This document shows positions 5,387 to 60,674 of a stretch of DNA of 64,000 nt, piece after piece. Source of the stretch: Psychrobacter cibarius. GTDB taxonomy: Bacteria > Pseudomonadota > Gammaproteobacteria > Pseudomonadales > Moraxellaceae. The translations under genes and the position numbers were made by a program. The stretch is from NCBI RefSeq assembly GCF_016107535.1, contig NZ_JABASQ010000007.1, positions 1 to 64,000 on the forward strand. Reading direction: 5' to 3'. The notes beneath the pieces were generated by a model. It was not told the origin of the DNA. It did no database searches and saw nothing but the letters and a program-made list of their open reading frames with translations. Each line of letters starts with the position of its first letter. Position 1 is the first letter of the stretch.

Positions 5387-5932
5387 ATGTTACTGGTCGT
5401 TTCAACTGTGAATATATCTACACTAAAAGGCATCCACGGTACGACTAAGTATCATGCAGAATCTATCCTCGTTAACGGATTTAAAGTAGACCCTGATGGA
5501 AAAGTGGGTAAAGCAGGACGAGGAGTATACTTCTGGCATTATCTCCATGATAGAAGTACTGCAGTATATTGTGCCAATGCATGGACAAACTTTGCTAAAA
5601 AACAGGGTTCTTATGATCAAGAAAAGGATTGTACATTAGTTAACATTGAGGTAGAAATATTAACTAATGTCGATAGTATATTGAATTTTGAAGGTCAAGT
5701 TCAGGAGAGCTTTAATAAAGCTTTTCCTATAGGTAGTTACGATGAGAGCAGCTATGGAGCAAAATTAGATGTATTTATTGAAGAATTGGAAAGTAACCTT
5801 TCTTGTAAGTTTAATTTAGTAAAAATTAATTTATCTGTGCCAAATTTGGGAAGAAATGTAGCGTTTGCTAATTCTTTTCCAGCTATCATTATCAAAGACG
5901 ACGTAGATATCAATATATTAGATAGTTTCTAA
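5387..5932 (+). CDS. ADP-ribosyltransferase-like toxin, CmdT-like (first gene of toxin-antitoxin-chaperone cassette)
   Basis: 181 residues. The N-terminal part reads HGTTKYHAESILVNGF, then GKAGRGVYFW, then STAVYCANAW. This is the His ... Gly-X-Gly-X-Tyr-Phe ... Ser-X-Ala-X-Tyr pattern of the PARP-type ADP-ribosyltransferase fold, with His17 and the Tyr of VYFW as the likely NAD-binding pair. The third catalytic residue cannot be fixed by eye. With a small protein and a SecB-like chaperone directly downstream, the best reading is the toxin of a CmdTAC-type system, in which CmdT ADP-ribosylates mRNA on phage infection. A GTG at 5408, closer to the HGT motif, is an alternative start; neither has a clear ribosome site. 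The gene is much more AT-rich than its neighbours, suggesting transfer. The KptA RNA phosphotransferase shares the fold but lacks this gene context. Confidence 0.7.
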   Translation: MLLVVSTVNISTLKGIHGTTKYHAESILVNGFKVDPDGKVGKAGRGVYFWHYLHDRSTAVYCANAWTNFAKKQGSYDQEKDCTLVNIEVEILTNVDSILNFEGQVQESFNKAFPIGSYDESSYGAKLDVFIEELESNLSCKFNLVKINLSVPNLGRNVAFANSFPAIIIKDDVDINILDSF

Positions 5933-6787: not shown

Positions 6788-8083
6788 ATGAACAATCTCA
6801 CCGTCGGACAACGCGCGCCCTTAAGCAACATTGCCATTGACGATACCGCACCCATCACGCTCAAGTTCACCCGCCAAAGCCCAGTAGAGATGGATATCAG
6901 CTGCTTTGCCTTAGATGCAGCGGGCAGACTGATCAATGATGATTACATGGTGTTTTATAATCAGCCAACCTCACCGTGCGGGCAAATCAAGCTCACCCAT
7001 TACGAGTCACAGCCAACGTCCTCTAGCAGCATCCAAGCCGAGTTTGAAGTGAATTTATCCAAACTGGCTACTAATATAGACAGCTTGTTTTTTGTATTAT
7101 CAGCCGACACGCCGCTCAATCAAATTCAATCGTTAGAGATTGGCATTTGGCAGCAGTCGCAAAAGGCGCAGGCAGAATGTCAAGCAGCAGACTTTGCCCA
7201 GCAGCAAGCCAGTATGTTGATGCAGCTTTATCGTAAGAGTGGCGTGTGGCGAGTATCTAACGTCGCGCAAGGCTTTAATGGTGGACTTGCCGCCATCGTG
7301 CAGCATTTCGGTGGCGATGTAGAAGAGAGTAGCTCGCAAGTACTCGAGCCGACCGCAACGCCAGTTCAAGCAAAACCGTCGCTAGAAAAAATCATGCTAG
7401 AAAAAGCACCAAAACTGGTCAATCTGGCCAAAAAAGCCACGATATCGCTTGAGAAACGCCAATTACAACAATTAACGGCAAAAGTGGCGTTGGTGCTAGA
7501 CGCCTCAGGCTCAATGAATAAACAGTACAAAAAAGGCCGCGTGCAAGAGGTGGTCAATCGCATATTGCCATTGGCAGTGAACTTCGATGACGACCAAGCG
7601 CTAGACTGCTGGGCGTTTGCCCGAGATCCGCAGTATTTGGGCGAGATTGGACTGAGCAACTATGACGGTTTCATTAACAACGCTCATGGCGGCTGGCGTA
7701 AATGGGCACTTGGCCCACGCATCAACAATGAAGCAGAGGTCATGAAAGCCGTGACGGAGTTTTATCAAAAAGACGGCTTGGATGTGCCTATCTACGTACT
7801 ATTTATCAGTGATGGCGGGGTGAATGATAATCGCGGTATCACTAAAGTCATGACGGAAGCTGCGAAATTACCGATATTTTGGCAGTTCGTAGGCTTAGGT
7901 GGTCGTGGTTATGGCATCTTAAAAAAACTAGACGATATGACAGGGCGCGTGATTGATAATTGTGACTTTTTTGAACTCGATGATTTGGATGATATCAGCG
8001 AAGAATCTCTTTACGAGAGCATGTTAGAGGAATTCCCAAACTGGTTAAAAGAAGCACGCGAGATAGGATTGATAGCGAAATAA
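6788..8083 (+). CDS. TerF-like stress protein: TerD-type domain fused to von Willebrand A domain
   Basis: 431 residues. Residues 1-150 resemble a TerD domain (calcium-binding beta sandwich of tellurite and stress resistance proteins; SLEIGIWQQ near its end). A Lys/Glu-rich linker follows. From about 230 there is a VWA domain whose metal site is DASGSMNK (residue 238 onward) with a later ISDGGVND acidic loop. This matches the cytoplasmic TerF/YceC-type stress proteins. The start has a good AAGGA ribosome site. No other ter genes are in the window, so a role in tellurite resistance is not supported; general envelope or phage stress is possible. Confidence 0.8.
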   Translation: MNNLTVGQRAPLSNIAIDDTAPITLKFTRQSPVEMDISCFALDAAGRLINDDYMVFYNQPTSPCGQIKLTHYESQPTSSSSIQAEFEVNLSKLATNIDSLFFVLSADTPLNQIQSLEIGIWQQSQKAQAECQAADFAQQQASMLMQLYRKSGVWRVSNVAQGFNGGLAAIVQHFGGDVEESSSQVLEPTATPVQAKPSLEKIMLEKAPKLVNLAKKATISLEKRQLQQLTAKVALVLDASGSMNKQYKKGRVQEVVNRILPLAVNFDDDQALDCWAFARDPQYLGEIGLSNYDGFINNAHGGWRKWALGPRINNEAEVMKAVTEFYQKDGLDVPIYVLFISDGGVNDNRGITKVMTEAAKLPIFWQFVGLGGRGYGILKKLDDMTGRVIDNCDFFELDDLDDISEESLYESMLEEFPNWLKEAREIGLIAK

Positions 8084-30717: not shown

Positions 30718-32142
30718 ATGCTTATGTCCAATATTGTGCTTGCTATCACTGGCGGTATCGCCGCCTATAAATCTGCTATCTTTGCCCGCCTATTAATCAA
30801 GGCAGGCTTTGATGTGCGTGTCATTATGACCACAGGCGCACAAGCTTTTATTACGCCACTGACCCTGCAAGCTTTGACTGGCAATGAGGTGCATATCTCA
30901 TTACTCGATGAAAAAGCAGAAGCGGGGATGGGGCATATCGAATTGGCAAAATGGGCGGACTTAATCATCATTGCCCCAGCCTCTGCCAATACGCTGGCGC
31001 GTCTCGCGATGGGTATGGCTGATGATTTATTGACAACCGTATGCCTTGCAACGGCGGCACCAGTCATCATTGCGCCAGCCATGAATCAGCAGATGTGGGC
31101 GCACCCTGCGGTCAATCTCAATGTCCAAACCCTGCGTGATATGAATTATCAAATTATTGCGCCTGCTAGCGGTGAGCAAGCCTGCGGTGATGTGGGAGCA
31201 GGGCGTTTGCCTGAACCTGAGCAGCTCTTGGCAGAAGTGTTATTATTTAACGCCATGCAAACCACGCCGCAATTATTGGCAGGTAAACGCGTGGTAATTA
31301 CTGCAGGACCGACGGTAGAAGCTATCGATCCGGTGCGCTACTTGTCCAATCACTCTACTGGCAAGATGGGCTTTGCATTAGCACGTGCGTGCGTGGCTGC
31401 TGGTGCAGATGTTATCTTGATTGCGGGCGGCAAAGTGGCACTGCCGACACCGCTGAATGTCACACGTATTGATGTATTGTCGGCTAAAGAGATGCTGATA
31501 GCAGCCCAGCAGTGCGTGGATGGTACGCACAGTGCGCTACAGTATGTGCCTGAAGATAAGCACGACCATTCTCACGATCACGAACACGATCATAACCATC
31601 AACATGAACATCATGGCGAGTGTGATTGCGGCGATGATCATAGCCATAGTCATAACCACAGCCATGAGATTGATGATGAGGAGCATGCTCATAGCGAGAA
31701 TCAAAATGTAATGGCGGATATCTTTATTGCCACTGCGGCTGTCGCTGACTATCGCACTGAAGAAGCTGCCCCGCAAAAAATTAAAAAAACCCAAGATGCT
31801 ATGACGTTGAGTTTGGTCAAAAACCCTGATATTTTAGCGACGATTTCGCTTGCGCATCCAGCGCTGTTTGTCGTTGGTTTTGCAGCAGAAACGCAAGATA
31901 TCGAGCGCTATGCTCGTGGCAAACTGGTGTCTAAAGATTTAGATTTGATCGCTTGTAATGATGTTTCCCGAGCAGACATTGGTTTTGCTAGCGATGACAA
32001 TGCCATGCAGGTATTTTTCTCAGAGCGTTATGAGCACGATAGCGTCACACTTGAGAAGGCGAGCAAAGATAAGATTGCCGAGCAGTTGGCTGGCATCATT
32101 GGTGAGATAATATGGCAACGCCACAATGGTCACAATGCCTAG
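30718..32142 (+). CDS. coaBC: Bifunctional CoaBC (phosphopantothenoylcysteine decarboxylase/synthase) with His-rich insertion
   Basis: 474 residues against about 400 for the family. The N-terminal flavin-binding CoaC domain has LAITGGIAAYK, the catalytic His in MGHIELAKWAD, PAMNQQMW, and the flap Cys in GEQACGDVGAGR. The CoaB synthase domain starts near 190 (VVITAGPTVEAIDPVRYLSN, STGKMG) and has PQKIKK with the conserved Lys. It makes 4'-phosphopantetheine for coenzyme A in two steps. Between residues 281 and 331 a segment with about 17 His, plus Asp, Glu and a Cys-Asp-Cys, breaks the CoaB domain; it looks like a metal-binding loop. It is divergent from radC and followed by a TSUP permease 33 bases on. 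Confidence 0.95.
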   Translation: MLMSNIVLAITGGIAAYKSAIFARLLIKAGFDVRVIMTTGAQAFITPLTLQALTGNEVHISLLDEKAEAGMGHIELAKWADLIIIAPASANTLARLAMGMADDLLTTVCLATAAPVIIAPAMNQQMWAHPAVNLNVQTLRDMNYQIIAPASGEQACGDVGAGRLPEPEQLLAEVLLFNAMQTTPQLLAGKRVVITAGPTVEAIDPVRYLSNHSTGKMGFALARACVAAGADVILIAGGKVALPTPLNVTRIDVLSAKEMLIAAQQCVDGTHSALQYVPEDKHDHSHDHEHDHNHQHEHHGECDCGDDHSHSHNHSHEIDDEEHAHSENQNVMADIFIATAAVADYRTEEAAPQKIKKTQDAMTLSLVKNPDILATISLAHPALFVVGFAAETQDIERYARGKLVSKDLDLIACNDVSRADIGFASDDNAMQVFFSERYEHDSVTLEKASKDKIAEQLAGIIGEIIWQRHNGHNA

Positions 32143-44219: not shown

Positions 44220-44222
44220 CTA
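44049..44222 (-). repeat. MITE-like element, family 1, copy C (174 bp, inverted)
   Basis: On the minus strand it begins TAGGACGTGCC and ends GAGGACACGACCTA, with TA borders; the orientation is opposite to copies A and B. Its first bases, TAG, are the stop codon of the histidine kinase (44220-44222). Confidence 0.85.
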
Positions 44223-46397
44223 GTCATGCTGGTGATAATGTGGGTCGTGCTTGACTGGTATGACAACTAAAAACCTGGTATGTCCATTCAACGTATCAGT
44301 AATGATGCGCCCTTGATGTGCGGTAACGATTTGTGATACTAGCGATAAGCCCAGTCCAGAACCTTTATTTTTTTGTTGCAACCGCACAAATGGACTAAAT
44401 ACTTCTTCACGTTTGTCTTCTGGAATACCCGTGCCTTCATCAATCACTGCCAATACTGCATATTTCGGTAATGGGCGTACAGGATCGGTCTTGGCTTTTT
44501 TTAGATGCTTGGCAAACAAGCCTTCTTTGCGCGGTGTACTGAGTACTTCTGTAGAATTTTGAGTGTTATTTTGAGCATCACCCTTGTCGCGTGTATTGCC
44601 ACCTTTATTTATTATGGCACCTTTGGATTTAGGAATTGCATCATTCAAGGCAGTACTCTTAGCGTCATTGATAACTGCAGATGGCTCTTCAGTGTCAGGA
44701 ACTGCTTTCCAAACCACCTTTTTAATTTTGTCAGTCAAATCATTGGTAAAGTTATGATAATTAGCAATCAATGAGGATGCACTGGTGCTTCCAACGGTAT
44801 CGCTACTGTTGACTAAGTTTGTCGAAGTGCTTGAGTCAGTTTGAACACTATCCATATCAGTAGATTCTGTTAAGGTTGCACAGGTCTCAATAGAGTCAAT
44901 GTCGCTGTTGGTATTAATATCAGCCTTATCGATTTTAGTCTCTATATTCACATCGGCATCGGTATCAGAATTGAGATCATGCTCAACCGCAATATTTTCT
45001 CCGTTTCTATATATCGGTGGTGCTGGCAACACGATAATAGCATCCGTTGCTTCAGATTTAACTTTACCAGTACTATGAGAAGAATCGTTTGAGTGTGTAT
45101 TACTATGCGCAATATGATTATGCGTATTGTCTTCATTAACCTCGATTGGTTGGTGATAGGAGTCAAAATCAGAGCTATTATAATCGGCAAAGCTACTGCA
45201 GAGTATCGTTTGTAGCAGGTAATCAGGTATGGTATCTGCTTCATCAATAGTTTGCACACCATACAATAGTACCGTCACGGGTGGCTTGCCGTGTAGCATG
45301 GCATTGGTTAACAAGTTGCGAATCAAATGGGTCAACATCGATGATTGACCATCGATCACAATATGTTCACCAATGAGCGTCGCTTCAGGATAATGTTGCC
45401 GTTCTTGATTCACCAGATCGTATAAATCTAAACTTTCAACTTGCTGCAAGGCATGACCGGCGTCTAAACGACTCACCAATAAGATACTCTCTACCAAGTC
45501 GTTGAGCCCTGACAAATCGCGGTTAATCGCTTGCGCACGTTTATCAAACTTTGCTTTGGTATCAGATGGTAGCGCCCCTGCGAGCATATCCATCATCTCA
45601 ATCTGTAAGCGGATACGAGTAATGGGGGTACGTAGCTCATGAGAAGCATGTGCTAAGAGCAGGTTATTGGCATCGATAAGGTGTTCGATTTTTTGTGCTG
45701 CTTGGTTAAATCCACGCGCTAGTGAGGCGATCTCATCGTTACCACGAGCATTCACCCGTACGGTAAAATCACCATCACCCAGTTGCGCCATCTGCTGGCT
45801 CATCTGATTGATGCGCCAAGTGATGGTACGAGCAATCCACCACAGGACGCCTGCCATAATAAGTAACAGTAGTAGTGTGCCAGTAAATAAATTCAGCGCA
45901 GAGGAGAGTACTGGTTTTTTAGGCGGTAAGCGTGATTCATACAAAAGCGTATAGCCGGTGCTGCTATAAACCTGAGCTTGCTTGGTAGGGGAGGTGTCTG
46001 CGAGAGAGGGAAAAACGCGTGAAAATAAAGAGGGCGGTGCGGGCAACTCCAACGGCAAATCGCTGTTATCCGTTTGCATTAGCAATCGACCTTCGTTGTC
46101 ATACAAGCCCATCTTTGCCTGTAATGACTCATCAAAGATATCAAAGCTCTTTTTGACCACTGCTAGCATAAAGCGCGCTTGCAAGCGATTGTCCTCGCTA
46201 ACAGAGATATTCAGCTCGTGCAAGAAAGGGTCTATTTGTCCTAAAATCTGGGTGGCCAATACTTCTGATCGAATACTTGCATCTTTGTCGTGCACAAGTT
46301 GCGTCAACAGCACCATCGCCACTGCAAATAAAATAAGTGCCAGCATGACACTGGCAAATAACTTGGCAAATACCGAACGAAATCCCAACTGCTGCAT
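44220..46397 (-). CDS. Sensor histidine kinase with large low-complexity insertion inside the ATPase domain
   Basis: 725 residues. TM1 is at about 10-32 and TM2 at 165-190, with a periplasmic domain between; HAMP follows (ITWRINQMSQQMAQLGDGDF). The HisKA box HASHELRTPITRIRL has its His near 250. The N box LIRNLLTNAMLHG is near 360-370. Then about 250 residues of Asp/Ser/Thr/Asn-rich sequence intervene before DEGTGIPEDKREEVF (G1, about 653) and GSGLGLSLV (G2). The parts are otherwise those of an RstB/CpxA-like kinase that phosphorylates the regulator encoded just upstream. The insert falls where the ATP-lid side of the fold begins. The stop lies within a MITE-like copy, so the native end may be changed. 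Confidence 0.88.
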   Translation of the reverse strand: MQQLGFRSVFAKLFASVMLALILFAVAMVLLTQLVHDKDASIRSEVLATQILGQIDPFLHELNISVSEDNRLQARFMLAVVKKSFDIFDESLQAKMGLYDNEGRLLMQTDNSDLPLELPAPPSLFSRVFPSLADTSPTKQAQVYSSTGYTLLYESRLPPKKPVLSSALNLFTGTLLLLLIMAGVLWWIARTITWRINQMSQQMAQLGDGDFTVRVNARGNDEIASLARGFNQAAQKIEHLIDANNLLLAHASHELRTPITRIRLQIEMMDMLAGALPSDTKAKFDKRAQAINRDLSGLNDLVESILLVSRLDAGHALQQVESLDLYDLVNQERQHYPEATLIGEHIVIDGQSSMLTHLIRNLLTNAMLHGKPPVTVLLYGVQTIDEADTIPDYLLQTILCSSFADYNSSDFDSYHQPIEVNEDNTHNHIAHSNTHSNDSSHSTGKVKSEATDAIIVLPAPPIYRNGENIAVEHDLNSDTDADVNIETKIDKADINTNSDIDSIETCATLTESTDMDSVQTDSSTSTNLVNSSDTVGSTSASSLIANYHNFTNDLTDKIKKVVWKAVPDTEEPSAVINDAKSTALNDAIPKSKGAIINKGGNTRDKGDAQNNTQNSTEVLSTPRKEGLFAKHLKKAKTDPVRPLPKYAVLAVIDEGTGIPEDKREEVFSPFVRLQQKNKGSGLGLSLVSQIVTAHQGRIITDTLNGHTRFLVVIPVKHDPHYHQHD

Positions 46398-46499: not shown

Positions 46500-47222
46500 T
46501 CAAACCTGATCAGTGGCAAATTGATAACCAACACCGCGTACCGTAATAATACGTTTTGGCTGGCGTGGGTTGTCTTCAATTAAAGCACGCAGACGCGAGA
46601 TATGAACATCAATGGCGCGATCGATATTATCTGAGCTGTCATCATTGGGCATGGCTTGCCACAGTTGCTCGCGATTCAATACTTTACCAGAATGGGTGGC
46701 AAAGTAATGCAATAATTGAAACTGATGCGTCGTTAAACGAACAGGCTCATCATCGATGGTCACTTCATGGCTGTCAGGGAACACGCTCAAACGACCAAAG
46801 GTTAAGCTATCAGACTGGCTATCTGCTTGATTGGGCTGCTCATGACGGCGAATAACAGCACGGATTCGAGCGAGAAGCTCACGTGGCTCAAAAGGCTTAG
46901 ATATATAATCGTCAGCACCCATCTCAAGACCTAGCACGCGATCGGTGGTATCACCTTTCGCTGTCAACATGATAATTGGCACTTTATTGGTCATGTTGTT
47001 TTTATTGCCGCGAATTTTTTGACACACTTGCATACCATCCATATCAGGTAGCATTAAGTCAAGCACGACCAAATCAATATCACGCTCTTTGGCATCCAAT
47101 AAATCAAGCCCTTCTTGACCAAGCCCTGCATGATGGACGTCATAATAATTCATGGTCAGGTAATCGCTGATTAACTCAGCTAGATCAGGATCATCTTCGA
47201 TTAATAAAATCTGCTTGCTCAT
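46500..47222 (-). CDS. OmpR-family response regulator
   Basis: 240 residues. The receiver domain has the acidic pair in LIEDDPDLAE, the phosphorylated Asp in VVLDLMLPDMDG, a Thr in MLTAKGDTTD, and Lys in YISKPFEPRELLARIRAVIRR. The winged-helix DNA-binding domain (about 140-237) has LTTHQFQLLHYFATHSGKVLNREQL and RVRGVGYQF-like VRGVGYQFATD. It resembles RstA/CpxR. An AGAGGA site precedes the ATG. It is paired with the kinase 102 bases downstream. Confidence 0.95.
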   Translation of the reverse strand: MSKQILLIEDDPDLAELISDYLTMNYYDVHHAGLGQEGLDLLDAKERDIDLVVLDLMLPDMDGMQVCQKIRGNKNNMTNKVPIIMLTAKGDTTDRVLGLEMGADDYISKPFEPRELLARIRAVIRRHEQPNQADSQSDSLTFGRLSVFPDSHEVTIDDEPVRLTTHQFQLLHYFATHSGKVLNREQLWQAMPNDDSSDNIDRAIDVHISRLRALIEDNPRQPKRIITVRGVGYQFATDQV

Positions 47223-47519: not shown

Positions 47520-48833
47520 CTATGAGACATTGACTTTTTTACCTTTAGCATCAGCCGGTAAATCAGCCAAACAAATCAAACTGTCGTTGCTAATACCCGC
47601 AATTAAATATTGCTTTGTGATAGGGTCATATTCGACTACTTCAATAGGCTGGCGTGTCAGGCGCTGATCCTGTCCAATAATCCACACGTTAGCAGTCAAC
47701 GGTGACAGAGGCTTATATGGTGACGTTTGTAATTCTGTCAAGTCAACATCGTGCAACGCCCGCTTAGGCACGATAGTGCCCACATCTATTTGACCATAAT
47801 TAACCCGCCCCGTGACTTTCATATCTGGCAATAACTTGTCTCGACTTGCTTCATTGTCAATGACGTTAACATAGACCAACAGCTTTTTCGGCTGGCTGGT
47901 CGCGGTCAGTTTACTGACTTGTCCTGTGAACTGTTCCGACATACCTTCAGCTGTAAAATTGACAGTCTGACCAACCGAAAGTTGCGGTTCTGCTTGGATA
48001 GGTAGGATCGCGATAAAGTGTAATTTAGTTTCATCGCTAAGCTGTAATAAAGGCGTGCGCGCCTCTAGTCTTTGACCTGCTTTGGCATATAAGTTTTTTA
48101 CACGGCCAGAAAAGCTGGCACGCACAGTGACCAAATTATACTGATTCTGCTGCGGTTTTAAGCTCGCCGTGCTATTAGCGCTGGTTTGGTCATTGTTTTT
48201 AAGGTTGCCGACTGCGTTTTTAGGAGTGCCCACTGTGGCGTTTGCTGCTGCCTCTTCTTTGTTAGCAATTGGGTCGTTTTTAGTGGTTGTTGCGCTATTT
48301 TCTGCTGTAGGCTGATTGGGTTTTGAGCTAGCGTCTGTTTTTTGTGAGTGTGTTTGCTTTACATCAACCGCATCGTTCGTCATCTCAGAATCTGGGGCAA
48401 CGCTGTTCGATTTTGAAGATTGTTCCTTAGCTGGGTTGGATGCATCTGCTGTTTTGCTTTCTGATTGCACGCGTCGAACAATAAGCAGCGGCATATCTTT
48501 TTCTACCCATTGACCCTCAGTAACCAGTATTTCTTCGACGTTAATGGGGTATGCAGCGATAAGCTTAGTCTGTTTGATAGGTTCGATCTTACCTTGTAAA
48601 CCAAGACTGGGCTGATAACGTGAAGGTTTTATGCTCAATATATGATCTGGCGTCATGGTCACACTATCGTCGGTAATGACAATAGGGGTATCTACAGTCT
48701 CACTGTTTTCTGCAGTCACAGGCTCATTGGTAGGCGGTGATGGCTGACAGGCAGCAAGAAGAAAAGCACTCAGTAGATAGGTGCTATTTTTTAAAAAATT
48801 ACAAGCCGTCATAGCAGTCACCATAGTAGTCAT
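47520..48833 (-). CDS. Membrane-fusion (HlyD/RND adaptor-like) lipoprotein with disordered insertion
   Basis: 437 residues. A lipobox LLAAC near residue 28 predicts a lipid anchor. The first half of the lipoyl-like domain is LQGKIEPIKQTKLIAAYPINVEEILVTEGQWVEKDMPLLIV, and the second is VTVRASFSGRVKNLYAKAGQRLEARTPLLQLSD. Between them, where adaptors have a helical hairpin, lie about 100 Ser/Asn/Ala/Lys-rich residues. A beta-barrel domain and membrane-proximal domain follow. Adaptors link inner-membrane pumps to outer-membrane channels, but no pump or TolC gene is beside this one. It is monocistronic, and the two-component pair follows downstream on the same strand. Confidence 0.75.
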   Translation of the reverse strand: MTTMVTAMTACNFLKNSTYLLSAFLLAACQPSPPTNEPVTAENSETVDTPIVITDDSVTMTPDHILSIKPSRYQPSLGLQGKIEPIKQTKLIAAYPINVEEILVTEGQWVEKDMPLLIVRRVQSESKTADASNPAKEQSSKSNSVAPDSEMTNDAVDVKQTHSQKTDASSKPNQPTAENSATTTKNDPIANKEEAAANATVGTPKNAVGNLKNNDQTSANSTASLKPQQNQYNLVTVRASFSGRVKNLYAKAGQRLEARTPLLQLSDETKLHFIAILPIQAEPQLSVGQTVNFTAEGMSEQFTGQVSKLTATSQPKKLLVYVNVIDNEASRDKLLPDMKVTGRVNYGQIDVGTIVPKRALHDVDLTELQTSPYKPLSPLTANVWIIGQDQRLTRQPIEVVEYDPITKQYLIAGISNDSLICLADLPADAKGKKVNVS

Positions 48834-53765: not shown

Positions 53766-56700
53766 ATGAAAAACCAGCCCAATGACATAGTGACGCTTGA
53801 GTGGTTATTACCACTGTTTAATCAGCAATTATCACAGATATCTGATGGCTGGCAGTTAGACGCTGATAGCGCTGATTATGAGCAGATGGTGCAACATTAT
53901 CATCAGGTTGGCGGCGCGCTAACGATGATTCGCCTTAATTTGTTAGCAGATCTTGCCAATAAACTGAGCTTGCTGGCAGATGTGAGCAGTCGCGAGCGTA
54001 TTTCTGCTAACGACCGCCGCATTGGTCAGTTTTCTCATCGCTTACTACAGCGTGAGTTGAATCAATACGCAGGTATGGGTAATCACAACACCGTTTTAAT
54101 TGATAATGCTGCTGAGGAGCTTACTCAAGCACTATCGAAACTGGGGGTAGCGCCAGATATCTCGGTCAGCTTGGCGAATACTCAGCATAAGAATCTAAAT
54201 AATCATGCTATCGATGATCATATTATCGATGGTATCAATAGCATCGAAGTGATGATGCCGGCGAATAGAACGGCGACGCATTTAGCTGATTATCACTATC
54301 AACAATTATTACTGGTTTGGCGACAGCAAGTACAAGCGTTATTGAGTGCCAATACCAATCAACCGTCCTTATTGACTACACTAGAAAGAGTCAGCCAATA
54401 CTTATGGCAGACCACTCAACATGATGACTTACAACGCCTTTGGTACTTAACGGAACTGTGGCTAAATGACCTTGCTCATAATGACACCCCATTACCTGAG
54501 CATTATGCGTCATTGCTAAGTCAGCTGGATCAAGTAATAGAGTCTCGCACTCAGCAAGCTGAGTTATCATCAAGCGTTATTCGAAGCTTAATCATAAGGG
54601 TGTATATTGAACTAAATAGCCTTGCTCAAAGTAGCAAGCGCACTCAGTCACTTCTAAATGATTTGTCGCAAACGTCGTCAACGGGATCACGTTTTTTACC
54701 ACGTATACTCAGTGAGCTTGAGACACTTATCTTTACTTTGGATAAGCCAGACACGCTTCTCATTCCTTTACAGAAAATACAAAGTCAACTCGAAGGTCGA
54801 GGTTGGACTTATTACGTGTCGCAAATACATGAAATTGTTACAGACATAGAGCAGGCTCTATCATCAGAAACAGGATTTGCGCAAGAACAATGGCAGATTG
54901 AGCGTCAGCTTCAAGAGCTATATAACGCTATCTATCATACCGAACAGACGATATCTCTCAAGATAGGGGATGCCGCTTCTTTTACGACATTGTCTGCAAC
55001 GTTTGAAGCTATTGAAACGCAGTCGGAAGCAAGTCCTGTGACGGCTTCTGTTGGTGGAAGTTTACGTGAGCTGCGCATCGCGGTAGAAGATGTCAAACAA
55101 AGCTTTCATGAATATGTACAGCGTCAAGACACTGACTTACTGCCCATTGCTGCTGATTTTACCGATATTGGCGATGCTTTTGCCGACATGGGATTGCCAT
55201 CAATTCGTCAAACCATGAATGATATGGCAAGTATATTTACACAATTGACCATTCATGAGATTGACGTACTCAGTTGGGATGTGACTCAGGCATTGGCTGA
55301 AGGACTAACGTCTATTGAATTGTTGCTTGACTACCTTGCGCAGCAGGTTTTTGACCCGCAGCTATTAATGCGGGCAAATGAGTATACTGCGACTGCCGCC
55401 CAACTTCTTACTCATTATATTGCATCGCCAGAGACCATTAAAGACACTTTCCTTACCCAAAAATCTGTAGCGACCAACGTATTGCGTTACGATGATAGTG
55501 GCGAGATTGCTCCTGCTAATAGTCAAAATGATGTTGCTAACCAAGCTTTGACTGATGTAGATCATGAGCGTGTGGTAGGGCAAGATACGGCTGATGGTGA
55601 TAGTACGGAGAGTGACGCATTAACGCGTGCTCGTGAGCAAGTTAAGCCTGATAATTTTGAGATGGACGCAGAGATTCGTGACATCTTTATCGAAGAGGTG
55701 ACGGAAGTCATTGCTGATTTAGAAGACTTTTTACCTATTTGGCAGCAAGATTCAAAGGATTTAACCCCACTCACTGAGGTGCGTAGAGGGTTCCATACCT
55801 TAAAAGGCTCAGGACGTATGGTTGGGGCTTTTAGCATCAGCGAGATGGCATGGTCGATCGAAAATCTGCTCAATCGTCTGTTAGATAAAACGCTGCCTGT
55901 TACAGATGACGTCGTAAATCTGGTGATGGATACGGCAAAACGGCTACCAGCATTAGTGATAGATTTTGAAGCGCAACAATCTCCAAGCTTTGATCCTGCT
56001 ATTACTATTCTACAAAGCCATAACCTCATGACACAGCAACCTATCAATGCTGGGCTGACTATATTAGATGCTGTCACTGCTGATTCAGACTCAGCATTAG
56101 AACTATCGCCTCCATTCGATGATGATGCTGAATTGCTAACTGCTCTCGACATGAGCAATGAATCAAACGAGACAACTACTGATAGTACAAAGAGCACTGC
56201 TGTTGCTTCCTTATCTGCTATTGATATTCCAGCGATACTCAAACCTTTTATGCAAGAAACCGAGCAGCTATCGGCAGATGCTCATGATGCCGATCCTGAT
56301 ATTAAAGAGATATTCTTAGAAGAAGCTGATGAAGTATTGGCTGAGATTGTACCTTTATATGAAGATTGGCGATTATTGCCAGCCGACTTAAGCGGATTGG
56401 TGGATATTCGTCGAGGGTTCCATACCTTAAAAGGTTCCGGTCGTATGGTCGGTGCAAATTATACGGCTGAGCTGGCTTGGGCTATAGAAAATATGCTTAA
56501 TCGCATTTTGGATCATAGTGTGACTGTCTCAGCAGATATGCGTCAGCTTATTGCTGATGTGCTAGCTGCCTATCCTGCGATGCTAACAGTATTTGAAAAT
56601 GACAGCCAAAATTATCCAGCGATGGTGCCTTTATGGATCGCATGCGCCAATGCTTATAGCAAAAAGCAAGAGGACGAATTTAGCTATTCTGCTTTGTATG

Positions 56701-59700
56701 AGCAAGCATCAAATAGTTCTGAGGATGAGACCATCCAAGCGTCAGTACCATCGCCTGCTATTGATGAGCATAGCCCGACCCAAGATAATCTTAATACAGA
56801 GATAGATACCACGCTGCAGACGATTAATTCTGTCAATGAAATGATAGCAGAAGCGCCTATTTATTTAGCACCGCAAAGCGAAGAAGAAAAAATGTTTTGT
56901 GAGATTTTTATCGACGAAGCAGAAGGACTGTTGCAAGATATTGACCAATTCGTTGATGAGCATCAAGATCAGTCTTATATTGAAGTGACGGATGAGATTG
57001 TCCGCGCATTTCATACCTTGCGAGGGGCTTCAGGTTCTAGTGCTTTAGCAGCGATCAGCGAGGTTAGCGCAACGATAGAGCATAGCTTAGAGCTACTGCA
57101 GCAGCAAGATACTGCCATGAATGCTCAACATCTAGAAGCATTGGCGAAGTCTGCTACGCTAATGGACGGTTATTTAAACAACTATAAGCAAAACGTTCAG
57201 CCACAAAATATATCGATCGAAGATGCACAAAGTCAGCAAGATATAGCCTCATTGCAAGCTATGCTTGGTGATCAATACGTCATTAGCGATGATAAGGTCA
57301 CGGCTGATAACAAACCAACGATAGAGCAGTTGTTAGATAATAATATTGATGAACTATTGGATGCTGAGTGGGAGTTAGATGACGCACTTAATCATTCTGA
57401 GACAGCACATGTTCAGGGCTATATATCGCAGCAAATATCGCAAATAGCTTACTTAGCCAATAAAGCAGAAGCGTTTCCAAAATTCACTTTTATTCTTAAT
57501 GAGTTGGGTCACGCTTATGCCTATTTGAAAGATAATATTGATACAGCAAGAAATATCGATACCCAAGCGGTTTTACACGCTGGTCATGCTCAATTGGTTG
57601 GTTTGTTCGACGCATTGGCTGGTAGCACGTCATTGAAGATTGACCAACAAGTTATTGAAGATCTACAACGTATTTACCAAGACGATGATAGCAATGGTGA
57701 TGAGGGTATCTTTGTCGTGAGAGCCGTTGCAGCACCTGAGCTACAGCTTGAATCTATTGATACTGATGCTGAGCTATTAGAGATATTTTTAGAAGAAGCT
57801 CAAGAGCTCGATGCCGCGCTGGATGAGAGTTTTAATAAGTGGCGTGCTGATATCAGCAATATAAATGCGCTAAAAGTTTTACAGCGCCATCTGCACACTA
57901 TCAAAGGTGGTGCGCGAATGGCAGGTATTCGTAGTATTGGTGATCTGACCCATGAAGCTGAAAGTGTCTATGAAGCATTTGTAGAGAATAGAAGAATACC
58001 GACACCACAATGGCTTGAAATAATGCAAATAGTGCAAGACACAATGTCGTTGCAAGTACTGCATATCGTAAATCATAAAAAATCATTTTTTGCTTCAGCG
58101 CTGATAGAGCAGTTACAACAGTTTGTAAAAGCCCAAGCCTTGCCAGAAACGGTAGAGCTAATCATACCTATACCGAAAACCCACTTCGAACCTGAAGCAC
58201 AAAATAGGGTGGCTAACAACGCTCACCTCAGCGCTGACGTATCTGATACCTTGAGCCTAGACATGATGATTAAACAGTCATGGGCGAATGGTTTGCCAGA
58301 TCCTGATATATTGTCGGTGTTTTTAGAAGAAGCTGAAGAGCTTACCAATCGTAATAAGTATCTGCAACTGTTCTTAACAGATACCAATAATACGACAGCA
58401 TTACAGGCATTGCAGCGTGATTTGCATACCATCAAAGGTGGCGCACGAATGGTCACCGCAGCTGGTATCGCTGATCTGGCACATGAAATGGAATCGGTTT
58501 ATACAGATTTTGTAGATAATCGTCGTCCTGCTACCAAAAAAGTATTGGAGTTGCTGGTTGCCAGTCATGACTGGCTTGCTGATGCAATATCTATCCTTAG
58601 ACAACATGTCAATCCACCGACGCCTGCGCTATTGATTGAGGCATTGCAGCAATTTAGTAAAAATCCTGACAGCTTAAAGCAAATTCCTAAAGAATCCCTA
58701 CAATCGCAGCATGAAGCGCTCTTTATTGCTAGAGAACAGCAAGACTCACAGTATCTGGCAAAAGATATTAGCGAGATGCCCTCTATGCTCAGCAGTACGG
58801 GTGAGGAAGATCAGAGTGCCAATAATAATGAGATGATTCGTATCTCAGGTGGTTTGATCGAGCATATGATTAACCTGTCTGGTGAGTCAGCCATCAACCG
58901 TGCTCGTATCGATATGGGCATGAGTAGCTTGACCAATAGTATCGAAGATATGGGTATTACGGTACAGCGCTTGGCTGATCAGTTACGTCGAATGGAAATC
59001 GAGCTTGAGGCGCAGATCTTGTCGCAGATAGACGATGAGCTGATTAATCATGAAGGGTTTGACCCTCTAGAGATGGATCAATATTCTTCTTTAAATCAGT
59101 TATCCAAATCTTTGACAGAGTCAGCCTCAGATTTGATTGATATTAATCATACTTTATTAGAAAAAACACGAGACAGTGAAAGCCTTTTATTACAGCTGTC
59201 TCGTACACAGACCGAGTTGCAAGATGGGCTTATGAATTCACGTATGGTGCCGTTTACGCGCTTAACGCCACGTCTTGAGCGTATCGTACGACAAACTGCC
59301 AATGAGCTGAATAAATCTGTTGAATTAACGATCATCAATGCCGATGATGAGATGGATAGAACCATTCTAGAGCGCATCACTTCACCGCTTGAACATATGC
59401 TCCGTAACGCCGTCGATCATGGTATCGAAAATACCTCAACGCGTTTAAAAGCAGGTAAAGAGCGTAGTGGTCGCATTACTCTTGAAGTAAATCGAGAAGG
59501 TAGTGAGATTGTCATTCAGTTAATAGATGACGGTCGCGGCATCGATGTAGAAGCCGTTCGTAATAAAGCCATTTCTCAAGGCTTGATTGATGCAAATGAT
59601 AACAGCCTAACAGATCTTGATATCATGCAGTATATTTTCCATGCTGGATTGAGTACCAGTAAGCAAGTAACGCAGATTTCTGGACGTGGCGTGGGCATGG

Positions 59701-60674
59701 ACGTGGTCATCAGCGAGATTCGTCAATTAGGTGGTGCTGTATCGGTTGTCTCAGAGCTGGGCAAAGGCTCACGCTTTACGATGCGTTTACCACTGACGGT
59801 TGCGGTATCTGATGCATTGGTTGTGCGTGCCGCGGATCGCTATTATGCGATACCTTTGGTACAGATTGAGCGTGTGGTCCGGATTAATCCAGAGAAGCTT
59901 TATGACTATTACCAGTCAGGCGATGCAACGTTGAACTTTGAAAATGTTGATTATCGAGTGCGTTATTTAAATGAGATTTTGTCAGGCAATGAACTGAATG
60001 AGCTGGTCGTTAATACCAATACCAGTTTGCCACTTATTATCATTAAGAACCGTAGCGGACAGAATATTGCATTGCAGGTTGATCAGATTGCAGGGTCACG
60101 TATCGAAGTCGTGGTCAAACCTCTAGGACAACAGTTATCGAATCTACCAGGTATTTCAGCAGCGACTATCATGGGCGATGGTTCAGTAATGCTTATCTTA
60201 GACCTGATTGCTTTGATGCGTAATGCGCAGTTGGTCAAAAATATCTCACAATCTGCTGATTCTAAACGTAGTCGTTTAGAGTTTAAGTCTACTATTTTAG
60301 TGGTGGATGACTCTGTTACCGTACGTAAAGTGACGTCACGTTTCTTAGAGCGCCAAGGGTTTACTGTGGCGGTGGCAAAAGATGGTATCGATGCGATTGA
60401 GATATTACAAGACATGATACCAGACATGATATTGCTCGACATTGAGATGCCACGTATGGATGGTTTCGAGGTGGCTACTCAAGTGAGACACAGCAAGCGC
60501 TTACAACATATCCCAATCATCATGATCACATCACGTACAGGTGAAAAGCATCGTGAGCGTGCACTGGAAATTGGTGTGAATGATTACATGGGTAAGCCAT
60601 TCCAAGAACAAGAGCTACTTAATAAAATCCAGCACATACTGGGTCAAAAGGTCAGCTTAACTTATGAAGGATAA
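53766..60674 (+). CDS. chpA: Hybrid chemotaxis histidine kinase ChpA (CheA/PilL-like)
   Basis: 2302 residues. Phosphotransfer modules come first: a degenerate N-terminal one around HYHQVGGAL (His46), then clear Hpt sites at His677 (HTLKGSGRM), His886 (HTLKGSGRM), His1083 (HTLRGASGS), His1377 and His1554 (both HTIKGGARM). The CheA dimerisation region starts near 1690, and the ATPase has NAVDHG (about 1880), DDGRGID (about 1920) and GRGVGMDVV. A CheW-like domain runs from about 2010, and a C-terminal receiver domain from about 2177 with DIEMPRMDG (Asp near 2224). It phosphorylates PilG and PilH to control type IV pili. AGGA precedes the ATG; the stop overlaps chpB. Confidence 0.96.
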   Translation: MKNQPNDIVTLEWLLPLFNQQLSQISDGWQLDADSADYEQMVQHYHQVGGALTMIRLNLLADLANKLSLLADVSSRERISANDRRIGQFSHRLLQRELNQYAGMGNHNTVLIDNAAEELTQALSKLGVAPDISVSLANTQHKNLNNHAIDDHIIDGINSIEVMMPANRTATHLADYHYQQLLLVWRQQVQALLSANTNQPSLLTTLERVSQYLWQTTQHDDLQRLWYLTELWLNDLAHNDTPLPEHYASLLSQLDQVIESRTQQAELSSSVIRSLIIRVYIELNSLAQSSKRTQSLLNDLSQTSSTGSRFLPRILSELETLIFTLDKPDTLLIPLQKIQSQLEGRGWTYYVSQIHEIVTDIEQALSSETGFAQEQWQIERQLQELYNAIYHTEQTISLKIGDAASFTTLSATFEAIETQSEASPVTASVGGSLRELRIAVEDVKQSFHEYVQRQDTDLLPIAADFTDIGDAFADMGLPSIRQTMNDMASIFTQLTIHEIDVLSWDVTQALAEGLTSIELLLDYLAQQVFDPQLLMRANEYTATAAQLLTHYIASPETIKDTFLTQKSVATNVLRYDDSGEIAPANSQNDVANQALTDVDHERVVGQDTADGDSTESDALTRAREQVKPDNFEMDAEIRDIFIEEVTEVIADLEDFLPIWQQDSKDLTPLTEVRRGFHTLKGSGRMVGAFSISEMAWSIENLLNRLLDKTLPVTDDVVNLVMDTAKRLPALVIDFEAQQSPSFDPAITILQSHNLMTQQPINAGLTILDAVTADSDSALELSPPFDDDAELLTALDMSNESNETTTDSTKSTAVASLSAIDIPAILKPFMQETEQLSADAHDADPDIKEIFLEEADEVLAEIVPLYEDWRLLPADLSGLVDIRRGFHTLKGSGRMVGANYTAELAWAIENMLNRILDHSVTVSADMRQLIADVLAAYPAMLTVFENDSQNYPAMVPLWIACANAYSKKQEDEFSYSALYEQASNSSEDETIQASVPSPAIDEHSPTQDNLNTEIDTTLQTINSVNEMIAEAPIYLAPQSEEEKMFCEIFIDEAEGLLQDIDQFVDEHQDQSYIEVTDEIVRAFHTLRGASGSSALAAISEVSATIEHSLELLQQQDTAMNAQHLEALAKSATLMDGYLNNYKQNVQPQNISIEDAQSQQDIASLQAMLGDQYVISDDKVTADNKPTIEQLLDNNIDELLDAEWELDDALNHSETAHVQGYISQQISQIAYLANKAEAFPKFTFILNELGHAYAYLKDNIDTARNIDTQAVLHAGHAQLVGLFDALAGSTSLKIDQQVIEDLQRIYQDDDSNGDEGIFVVRAVAAPELQLESIDTDAELLEIFLEEAQELDAALDESFNKWRADISNINALKVLQRHLHTIKGGARMAGIRSIGDLTHEAESVYEAFVENRRIPTPQWLEIMQIVQDTMSLQVLHIVNHKKSFFASALIEQLQQFVKAQALPETVELIIPIPKTHFEPEAQNRVANNAHLSADVSDTLSLDMMIKQSWANGLPDPDILSVFLEEAEELTNRNKYLQLFLTDTNNTTALQALQRDLHTIKGGARMVTAAGIADLAHEMESVYTDFVDNRRPATKKVLELLVASHDWLADAISILRQHVNPPTPALLIEALQQFSKNPDSLKQIPKESLQSQHEALFIAREQQDSQYLAKDISEMPSMLSSTGEEDQSANNNEMIRISGGLIEHMINLSGESAINRARIDMGMSSLTNSIEDMGITVQRLADQLRRMEIELEAQILSQIDDELINHEGFDPLEMDQYSSLNQLSKSLTESASDLIDINHTLLEKTRDSESLLLQLSRTQTELQDGLMNSRMVPFTRLTPRLERIVRQTANELNKSVELTIINADDEMDRTILERITSPLEHMLRNAVDHGIENTSTRLKAGKERSGRITLEVNREGSEIVIQLIDDGRGIDVEAVRNKAISQGLIDANDNSLTDLDIMQYIFHAGLSTSKQVTQISGRGVGMDVVISEIRQLGGAVSVVSELGKGSRFTMRLPLTVAVSDALVVRAADRYYAIPLVQIERVVRINPEKLYDYYQSGDATLNFENVDYRVRYLNEILSGNELNELVVNTNTSLPLIIIKNRSGQNIALQVDQIAGSRIEVVVKPLGQQLSNLPGISAATIMGDGSVMLILDLIALMRNAQLVKNISQSADSKRSRLEFKSTILVVDDSVTVRKVTSRFLERQGFTVAVAKDGIDAIEILQDMIPDMILLDIEMPRMDGFEVATQVRHSKRLQHIPIIMITSRTGEKHRERALEIGVNDYMGKPFQEQELLNKIQHILGQKVSLTYEG

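What the first reader, a model, noticed from the sequence alone, without database searches (positions are those of the whole stretch)
44440..45250. A 250-residue disordered insert inside a histidine kinase ATPase domain
Between the N box (near residue 365) and the G1 box (near 653) there are about 250 Asp/Ser/Asn/Thr-rich residues, where kinases usually have about 40. All catalytic boxes remain intact and the frame is unbroken. A flexible insert at this place could affect ATP-lid movement or bind metals or partners.
Basis: partly seen in the sequence, partly recalled or inferred. Interest (0 to 1): 0.6.

Follow-up and report, generated by a model that had tools for sequence, protein, structure and literature searches.

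The report
Motif-carrying disordered loop in kinase
A bacterial sensor kinase of Psychrobacter carries a long, floppy, fast-changing loop in the middle of its ATP-binding domain, and four short pieces of that loop have been kept nearly unchanged, which suggests that they do a job, although which job is not yet known.

Summary
The kinase (window 44220-46397, minus strand, 725 aa) has 283 residues between N box and G1 box; nine other kinases of its genome parsed by motif have 18-65, four from other genomes of the family 21-25. The insert (residues 382-645) is 42% D/S/N/T. It is genus-wide: 61 of 61 Psychrobacter orthologues have 140-319 residues there; 21 Moraxella orthologues 65-124. The two halves are predicted to form an ordinary ATPase fold, with the insert in the loop between two adjacent strands.

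It is neither featureless nor a known domain. Three fast-evolving polar linkers (omega 0.37-0.48) separate four short islands under purifying selection (0.03-0.12): a helical base after the N-box strand, a PAPPIYKNGE hairpin, an amphipathic IKKxxW helix, and a basic RKESLFAKHLKKAK stretch before the G1 strand. With islands defined on sequences not used for the rates, all 10 species clusters agree in direction. The outer two also occur, looser, in Moraxella; the inner two only in one Psychrobacter clade, where the helix has decayed on several branches.

Best reading: a hairpin loop that became a string of docking motifs on the catalytic domain. Partner and effect are inferred. New variant of a known kind.

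The parts
44220..46397 (-). sensor histidine kinase, 725 aa: two membrane helices (inferred from sequence), periplasmic region, HAMP, HisKA, HATPase_c split by the insert
   Evidence: ORF; Pfam; model
45684..45839 (-). HAMP domain, residues 187-238
   Evidence: E 9e-14
45456..45668 (-). HisKA (dimerisation and phospho-acceptor) domain, residues 244-314
   Evidence: E 2.4e-11
45288..45317 (-). N box and following residues, 361-370
   Evidence: sequence; N361, N365, A366, H369, G370 invariant in 76 aligned orthologues
44463..45254 (-). the insert as trimmed here, residues 382-645 (264 aa)
   Evidence: trimmed length 121-300 in 61 Psychrobacter, 46-105 in 21 Moraxella, 90-115 in 5 of a third genus
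45159..45254 (-). island I1, residues 382-413: predicted helices 384-388 and 392-405; A387, P391 and L394 in 61 of 61 Psychrobacter
   Evidence: omega 0.06 over 379-413
45030..45158 (-). linker A, residues 414-456, fast evolving
   Evidence: omega 0.37 over 414-455; pLDDT under 50 to residue 453
44991..45029 (-). island I2, residues 457-469, PAPPIY[KR]NGE, predicted beta hairpin; Y[KRCQ]NG in 52 of 61 Psychrobacter
   Evidence: omega 0.12 over 456-470; pLDDT 87 but about 60
44763..44990 (-). linker B, residues 470-545, fast evolving
   Evidence: omega 0.48 over 471-540
44697..44762 (-). island I3, residues 546-567, predicted amphipathic helix with IKKxxW; full pattern in 44 of 61 Psychrobacter, the Trp in 48 of 61
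   Evidence: omega 0.09 over 541-567; helix 543-562, pLDDT 42-59
44535..44696 (-). linker C, residues 568-621, fast evolving
   Evidence: omega 0.38 over 568-622
44463..44534 (-). island I4, residues 622-645, basic RKE[GS]LFAKHLKKAK stretch before the G1 strand; F628 and K636 in 60 of 61 Psychrobacter; looser form in Moraxella
   Evidence: omega 0.03 over 623-640
44250..44462 (-). second half of the ATPase domain with G1, F and G2 boxes, residues 646-716
   Evidence: Pfam 645-716
46500..47222 (-). OmpR-type response regulator, 240 aa, directly upstream, taken as the cognate one
   Evidence: found in 79 of 80 loci around the kinase; 100% identical in another Psychrobacter genome, 90% in Moraxella, 47% or less outside three genera

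Best explanation
The insert is a lineage-specific expansion of the hairpin loop between the N-box and G1 strands of an EnvZ/OmpR-like sensor kinase that, within the genomes searched, occurs in Psychrobacter, Moraxella and one further genus of the family (shown). The trimmed loop is 46-115 residues in the sister genera and 121-300 in Psychrobacter (shown; that it grew rather than shrank is inferred). Two short elements at its ends, a helical base and a basic stretch, are shared with Moraxella; two inner motifs (a PAPPIYKNGE hairpin and an IKKxxW amphipathic helix) occur in one clade of Psychrobacter and are under purifying selection while the linkers between them drift (shown). How it most likely works (inferred): the loop is a flexible tether that presents short docking motifs from the catalytic domain. 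These motifs bind either the kinase itself (dimerisation helices, the other protomer) or a partner such as the response regulator or the membrane, and so tune the kinase/phosphatase balance or place the protein. The ATPase core itself is ordinary.
For: Length and spread: 61 of 61 Psychrobacter with N box-G1 distance 140-319 (median 267), 21 Moraxella 65-124 (median 79), 5 of genus g28 109-134. Restriction: the RR is 80-100% identical in nine genomes of g1, g31 and g28 and at most 47% in the rest of 41 genomes, one g28 genome among them. Islands: profile, alignment, residue counts. Selection: omega islands 0.03-0.12, linkers 0.37-0.48, folded core 0.01-0.03. Control with islands defined on 28 sequences and tested on 33 others: islands 0.05, linkers 0.41, core 0.02, islands below linkers in 10 of 10 clusters; pS of islands and linkers is alike (0.239 and 0.235), so the constraint is on the protein, not the DNA. 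Structure: the core is predicted to fold with the insert present (residues 321-380 pLDDT 87-96) and the insert lies between strands 374-381 and 646-653; the CA fragment of an orthologue matches kinase CA domains at Z 17.5, rmsd 1.9, 133 of 147 residues. I3: hydrophobic moment median 0.48 over 44 sequences, reached by a median 3% of shuffles; its Trp stands in 48 of 61 sequences. Spacing between islands varies (38-80, 42-105, 31-98 residues, 43 sequences), as for tethers. Precedents: WalK tail (PMC9087282, abstract), RNase E microdomains (PMC4435900, abstract), CckA CA sheet edge (PMC8534201, passages).
Against: No partner, ligand or functional effect was tested. I2 has high confidence (pLDDT 87) only in the full-length model of the window protein; in the CA-only model of an orthologue it stays a hairpin at about 60. 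The full I3 pattern is missing from 8 of the 52 sequences that keep I2, on five branches of the tree; four of these (L020, L035, L045, L047) keep the Trp, four do not, so I3 is dispensable in some species. Eight deep Psychrobacter and L058 lack I2 and I3. In the deep cluster L051/L053/L061 islands and linkers hardly differ (0.27 and 0.32). I1 and I4 are loose in genus g28. The genome also carries polar inserts in other proteins, e.g. CoaBC, which favours a general habit for the linkers. I1 and I4 alone may simply cap the hairpin.
Confidence: 0.6

Rival explanations
1. Neutral loop growth: a surface hairpin that tolerates insertions, in a genus that readily adds D/S/N/T/H-rich stretches; the insert has no function of its own.
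For: Length varies 121-300 in one genus; linkers have omega 0.37-0.48; other window proteins carry similar internal stretches: CoaBC 274-343 and the adaptor 124-235, and the CoaBC stretch is absent from three Moraxella genomes and one deep Psychrobacter.
Against: Four islands are held at omega 0.03-0.12 beside linkers in the same loop, in 10 of 10 clusters with disjoint definition; no loss of I2 was seen within the clade that has it (L058 at its base lacks it); I4 is about as constrained as the folded core (0.03 against 0.01-0.03).
Confidence: 0.25
2. Structural elaboration only: I1, I2 and I4 pack on the ATPase core as an extended hairpin cap that stabilises it, with I3 and the linkers as loose filler.
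For: I1 helices have block pLDDT 81-94 in both models apart from their last residues; I2 has 87 in one model; I1 and I4 flank the strands and are shared with Moraxella.
Against: I2 confidence is not reproduced; I4 (46-57) and I3 (42-59) have low confidence; I3 is conserved as an amphipathic helix; spacing of the islands varies widely.
Confidence: 0.12
3. Metal-binding or ATP-lid-modulating loop.
For: Many acidic and some His residues in the window copy.
Against: Acidic and His residues of the linkers are not conserved; no conserved His/Cys cluster in the islands; the ATP lid lies between the F and G2 boxes, after G1 in sequence.
Confidence: 0.03

Closest known systems
EnvZ/OmpR-type sensor kinases (HisKA + HATPase_c)
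   Same: HAMP-HisKA-HATPase_c order, catalytic boxes, OmpR-type regulator next door; NCBIfam EnvZ is the best-scoring profile (124.7 bits) and the EnvZ chimera 4cti the best solved relative by sequence; CA fold of an orthologue Z 16.9 with 4kp4
   Different: Far below NCBIfam's EnvZ cut-off (415 bits); a 264-residue insert where the other kinases measured here have 18-65 residues from N box to G1
S. mutans WalK C-terminal tail with the W-acidic motif (PMC9087282, abstract)
   Same: Disordered segment of a histidine kinase with a conserved Trp motif; there it binds the regulator
   Different: A C-terminal tail, not an insert within the ATPase domain; Trp among acidic residues, here next to basic ones; no binding tested here
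RNase E noncatalytic region with microdomains (PMC4435900, abstract)
   Same: Disordered region with short conserved motifs gained once with few losses
   Different: C-terminal region of a ribonuclease; partners known; tandem repeats proposed as progenitors, none found here
MORC2 GHKL ATPase with coiled-coil insertion CC1 (PMC5811534, passages)
   Same: Lineage-specific insertion in an ATPase module of the same superfamily
   Different: Ordered antiparallel coiled coil of 80 residues in the transducer-like domain, not a disordered loop between the N and G1 boxes
CckA CA domain with c-di-GMP at the edge of its beta sheet (PMC8534201, passages)
   Same: A site at the edge of a kinase CA sheet is used to control kinase against phosphatase activity
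   Different: Small-molecule site; no disordered insert is described in the passages seen

Membership tests
HisKA/HATPase_c sensor histidine kinase | HisKA with phospho-acceptor His and HATPase_c with N, G1, F, G2 boxes | tested here: met
   Pfam HisKA and HATPase_c over their cut-offs; H253, N361, N365, D653, G655, G657, F667, F670, G679, G681, G683 invariant in 76 sequences; CA fold Z 17.5 for an orthologue fragment
EnvZ (NCBIfam equivalog NF007004) | score over the curated cut-off of 415 bits | tested here: not met
   124.7 bits
OmpR regulator (NCBIfam NF007005) | score over the curated cut-off of 331 bits | tested here: not met
   217.8 bits
W-acidic motif tails as in WalK | conserved Trp surrounded by acidic residues in a C-terminal tail | tested here: not met
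   the conserved Trp is followed mostly by K/R and lies inside the ATPase domain
Disordered region with microdomains (SLiM string) | short motifs under stronger constraint than flanking disordered linkers | tested here: met
Disordered region with microdomains (SLiM string) | each motif binds a partner | not testable with these tools
   no binding data
Fusion with a known domain | a Pfam domain in the insert | tested here: not met
   no Pfam match at E <= 0.001 within 382-644; the insert finds only itself in its own genome at E <= 10
MORC2-type coiled-coil insertion | paired long antiparallel helices | tested here: inconclusive
   one helix of about 20 residues predicted in the insert beyond I1, at low confidence

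The most novel reading that the evidence does not exclude
A sensor kinase has turned the loop between its N-box and G1 strands into a tether carrying docking motifs, so that its catalytic domain itself recruits a partner (regulator, membrane or another protein) or restrains its own movement: a way of control that I did not meet in the papers found here, built up step by step in one genus.
Probability: 0.35. Interest if true: 0.65.

Novelty: new variant of a known kind. Interest (0 to 1): 0.45.

Why it matters
Histidine kinase ATPase domains are usually treated as a compact, interchangeable engine. This one carries up to 300 extra residues between two neighbouring strands and has motifs under selection there, with natural versions from 46 residues (Moraxella) to 300 (Psychrobacter). 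That series makes it a good case for how a loop becomes a disordered regulatory region in bacteria, and for testing whether the catalytic domain can be a docking platform.

Tried and rejected
Metal site: no conserved His/Cys cluster in the islands. Tandem-repeat origin: none found at score 30 or more. Paralogous source of the insert: the insert finds only itself in its genome at E <= 10. DNA-level constraint as the cause of the islands: synonymous differences are alike in islands and linkers. A second kinase with such an insert in the same genome: not seen among the 9 frames parsed and 6 read by eye; the rest of the 22 were not measured. Plasmid origin of the system: megablast of the regulator found no plasmid record (near records may be left out there). 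Docking of I2 on the core: hinted at, not reproduced; left open. Identity with the Moraxella catarrhalis MesRS system: the paper is not held; only passages of a review were seen (PMC8895709); untested.

Literature: five searches bear on kinases with disordered or long inserts and one on low-complexity proteins of Psychrobacter; none listed a histidine kinase with a disordered insert between N and G1 boxes by title and abstract start. Searches were about Moraxella regulators and CckA. This covers only the open-licence library and those terms.

BfmS was considered from memory as the relative behind the weak hits in other genera of the family; that label, also in a notebook entry, comes from no call on those proteins (one search lists BfmR only as one of many solved relatives of the regulator). 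A regex survey of the adaptor's insert parsed 8 of 80 loci and that of CoaBC 6 of 30, so no count is built on them. 11 of the 87 orthologues were left out of the first structure alignment and 39 of 87 from the second, mostly near-duplicates in the first. Of 1,830 pairs of Psychrobacter sequences only the 64 of moderate divergence entered the rate tests.

Full report
WHAT IS THERE. The gene at 44220-46397 (-) encodes a 725-residue sensor histidine kinase with HAMP (187-238), HisKA (244-314) and a HATPase_c domain of which Pfam sees only the second half, 645-716. Directly upstream lies an OmpR-type regulator, 46500-47222 (-). The order adaptor - regulator - kinase - MetN/MetI-like transporter genes is widely kept: in 80 loci around related kinases the regulator is found in 79, the adaptor in 76 and a MetN-like gene in 74 (some contigs end early). 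Titles of related contigs place the window in Psychrobacter, nearest to P. glacincola and P. immobilis isolates (80 best of 87 kept).

Between the N box (361-366) and G1 (653-658) lie 283 residues. In the same genome 22 other HATPase frames are listed; nine could be parsed by motif and have 18-65; one parse (L101) was dropped as spurious; six of the unparsed were read by eye and reach about 58 at most; the rest were not measured. Four kinases from other genomes of the family have 21-25. Taken from the end of the N-box-side strand, the insert is residues 382-645, 264 residues, window 44463-45254. It is 42.0% D/S/N/T against 23.1% in the rest of 45 window proteins; the next richest 264-residue stretch has 34.5%.

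IT IS GENUS-WIDE AND DIFFERS ALONG THE FAMILY. All 61 Psychrobacter genomes examined hold the kinase with an open frame, with N box-G1 distance 140-319, median 267. In genus g28, not named here, 5 of 6 genomes have it at 109-134. The other genera of the family gave only weak best matches, none below 1.6e-23. The regulator tells the same: 80-100% identity in nine genomes of these three genera, at most 47% in the others of 41 genomes, including G077 of g28. So the pair is a system of this group, and even its shortest loops (N box-G1 65) are at the upper end of what other kinases here have.

IT IS NOT FEATURELESS. A profile of 87 orthologues and the alignment (42 of the 87 shown) reveal four islands. 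I1 (382-413) follows the N-box-side strand; A387, P391 and L394 stand in 61 of 61 Psychrobacter, P391 and L394 also in 21 of 21 Moraxella, but not in most of g28. I2 (457-469) reads PAPPIYKNGE; Y[KRCQ]NG is present in 52 of 61 Psychrobacter and in no Moraxella or g28 sequence. I3 (546-567) reads about FTxDLTDKIKKVxWKAVP; the pattern IKKxxW is present in 44 of 61 and the Trp column in 48 of 61; the helix has a hydrophobic moment of median 0.48, reached by a median 3% of shuffles (44 sequences). I4 (622-645) reads RKE[GS]LFAKHLKKAKxEP; F628 and K636 stand in 60 of 61 Psychrobacter, and a looser basic form is in Moraxella (K636 in 18 of 21).

SELECTION. From 1,830 pairs of Psychrobacter sequences I used the 64 whose synonymous difference in the core lay between 0.08 and 0.5. 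dN/dS is 0.01-0.03 in the core, 0.06, 0.12, 0.09 and 0.03 in I1-I4, and 0.37, 0.48 and 0.38 in the three linkers. As those islands were chosen on the same data, I repeated it with islands defined only on the 28 sequences that are in none of the 64 pairs: islands 0.05, linkers 0.41, core 0.02; islands are below linkers in 10 of 10 species clusters, though in the deep cluster L051/L053/L061, which lacks I2 and I3, the gap is small (0.27 and 0.32). pS is alike in islands (0.239) and linkers (0.235), so the protein is what is conserved. Pairs within a cluster are not independent, and alignment in the linkers is uncertain.

HISTORY. A tree of 450 core columns (FastTree; rooted on g28 by choice, support not examined) puts I2 and I3 in one clade of Psychrobacter; L058 at its base has neither, and 8 deep Psychrobacter that group beside Moraxella in this tree have neither. 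The full I3 pattern is missing from 8 sequences that keep I2, on five branches; L020, L035, L045 and L047 of these keep the Trp. No loss of I2 was seen within the clade. That the loop grew in steps, rather than by one fusion, is my inference from the range of lengths; ancestral lengths were not reconstructed.

STRUCTURE. In the AlphaFold2 model with 76 of the 87 orthologues aligned (mean pLDDT 67.8, pTM 0.43), residues 321-380 have block pLDDT 87-96 and 641-720 75-92 except 47 at 671-680, so the core is predicted to fold with the loop in place. The insert lies between strands 374-381 and 646-653. I1 forms helices 384-388 and 392-405 (93 and 87, falling to 51 at its end), I2 a small hairpin 462-469 (87), I3 a helix 543-562 (42-59), I4 has 46-57; linkers are under 50. 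A second model, of the ATPase fragment of orthologue L016 with 48 of 87 sequences, repeats the I1 helices (94 and 81), the I2 hairpin at only about 60 and the I3 helix at 51-70. So docking of I2 on the core is not established. The fragment aligns with kinase CA domains at Z 17.5 (3a0y, rmsd 1.9, 133 of 147 residues) and Z 16.9 for EnvZ 4kp4. Coordinates and PAE were not available.

MECHANISM. Shown: a lineage-specific loop with constrained islands in relaxed linkers; predicted: an ordinary ATPase core. Inferred: the loop is a tether for docking motifs on the catalytic domain. The variable spacing of the islands (38-80, 42-105, 31-98 residues; 43 sequences) fits tethered motifs better than one folded unit. 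What they bind is open; the regulator, the kinase's own dimerisation helices, or the membrane (basic I4, amphipathic I3) are candidates. Precedents for each half of the idea exist: a Trp motif in the disordered WalK tail is needed for binding the regulator (PMC9087282, abstract); RNase E holds microdomains in a disordered region (PMC4435900, abstract); c-di-GMP at the edge of the CckA CA sheet controls kinase against phosphatase activity (PMC8534201, passages); MORC2 has a functional insertion in a related ATPase module (PMC5811534, passages).

AGAINST AND ALTERNATIVES. The linkers look like part of a habit: CoaBC in the same window has a His/Asp-rich stretch (274-343) that one deep Psychrobacter (G005) and three Moraxella genomes lack, their two match pieces lying about 9-28 bases apart, and the efflux adaptor has a polar stretch at 124-235. 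So neutral growth explains the linkers well; it does not explain the islands. A purely structural cap is possible for I1, I2 and I4.

NOVELTY. It is a member of the HisKA/HATPase_c kinases with an unusual loop. It is not EnvZ by NCBIfam's cut-off, not a W-acidic tail, and holds no Pfam domain in the insert. Of nine literature searches, the five that bear on it listed no kinase with such an insert (see Tried and rejected); that is a weak negative. I call it a new variant of a known kind.

Noticed in passing
30718-32142 (+), protein residues about 274-343: CoaBC (flavoprotein/DFP enzyme) carries an internal His/Asp-rich stretch (HDHSHDHEHDHNH...) between conserved parts; similar ones in four other genomes parsed (two Psychrobacter, two g28), missing in deep Psychrobacter G005 and in three Moraxella genomes by match gaps.
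   Followed up: partly
47520-48833 (-), protein residues about 124-235: HlyD/RND-type periplasmic adaptor with a polar, low-hydrophobic stretch of about 110 residues at the place where adaptors usually have their helical hairpin (place recalled, not tested); 90-117 residues in the 8 loci parsed of 80.
   Followed up: partly
5387-5932 (+): 181-residue protein without Pfam match at E <= 0.01; its HGT...GF...GRGVYF pattern recalls PARP/ADP-ribosyltransferase folds (from memory, untested). It lies near a TerD/TerF-like gene (6788-8083).
   Followed up: no
53766-60674 (+): 2302-residue CheA-like protein with five Hpt matches, HATPase_c, CheW and a receiver domain, in a cluster that looks like pil-chp (name recalled).
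   Followed up: no
46500-47222 (-): The regulator is unusually conserved: 100% identical over 240 residues to that of genome G089, whose kinase (L045) is only 80% identical.
   Followed up: partly
L105, a kinase elsewhere in the window's own genome (C33:82311-82703): Another kinase of the genome has a Ser/Thr/Asp-rich stretch of about 45 residues before its GTGLGL box, that is in the ATP-lid region.
   Followed up: no
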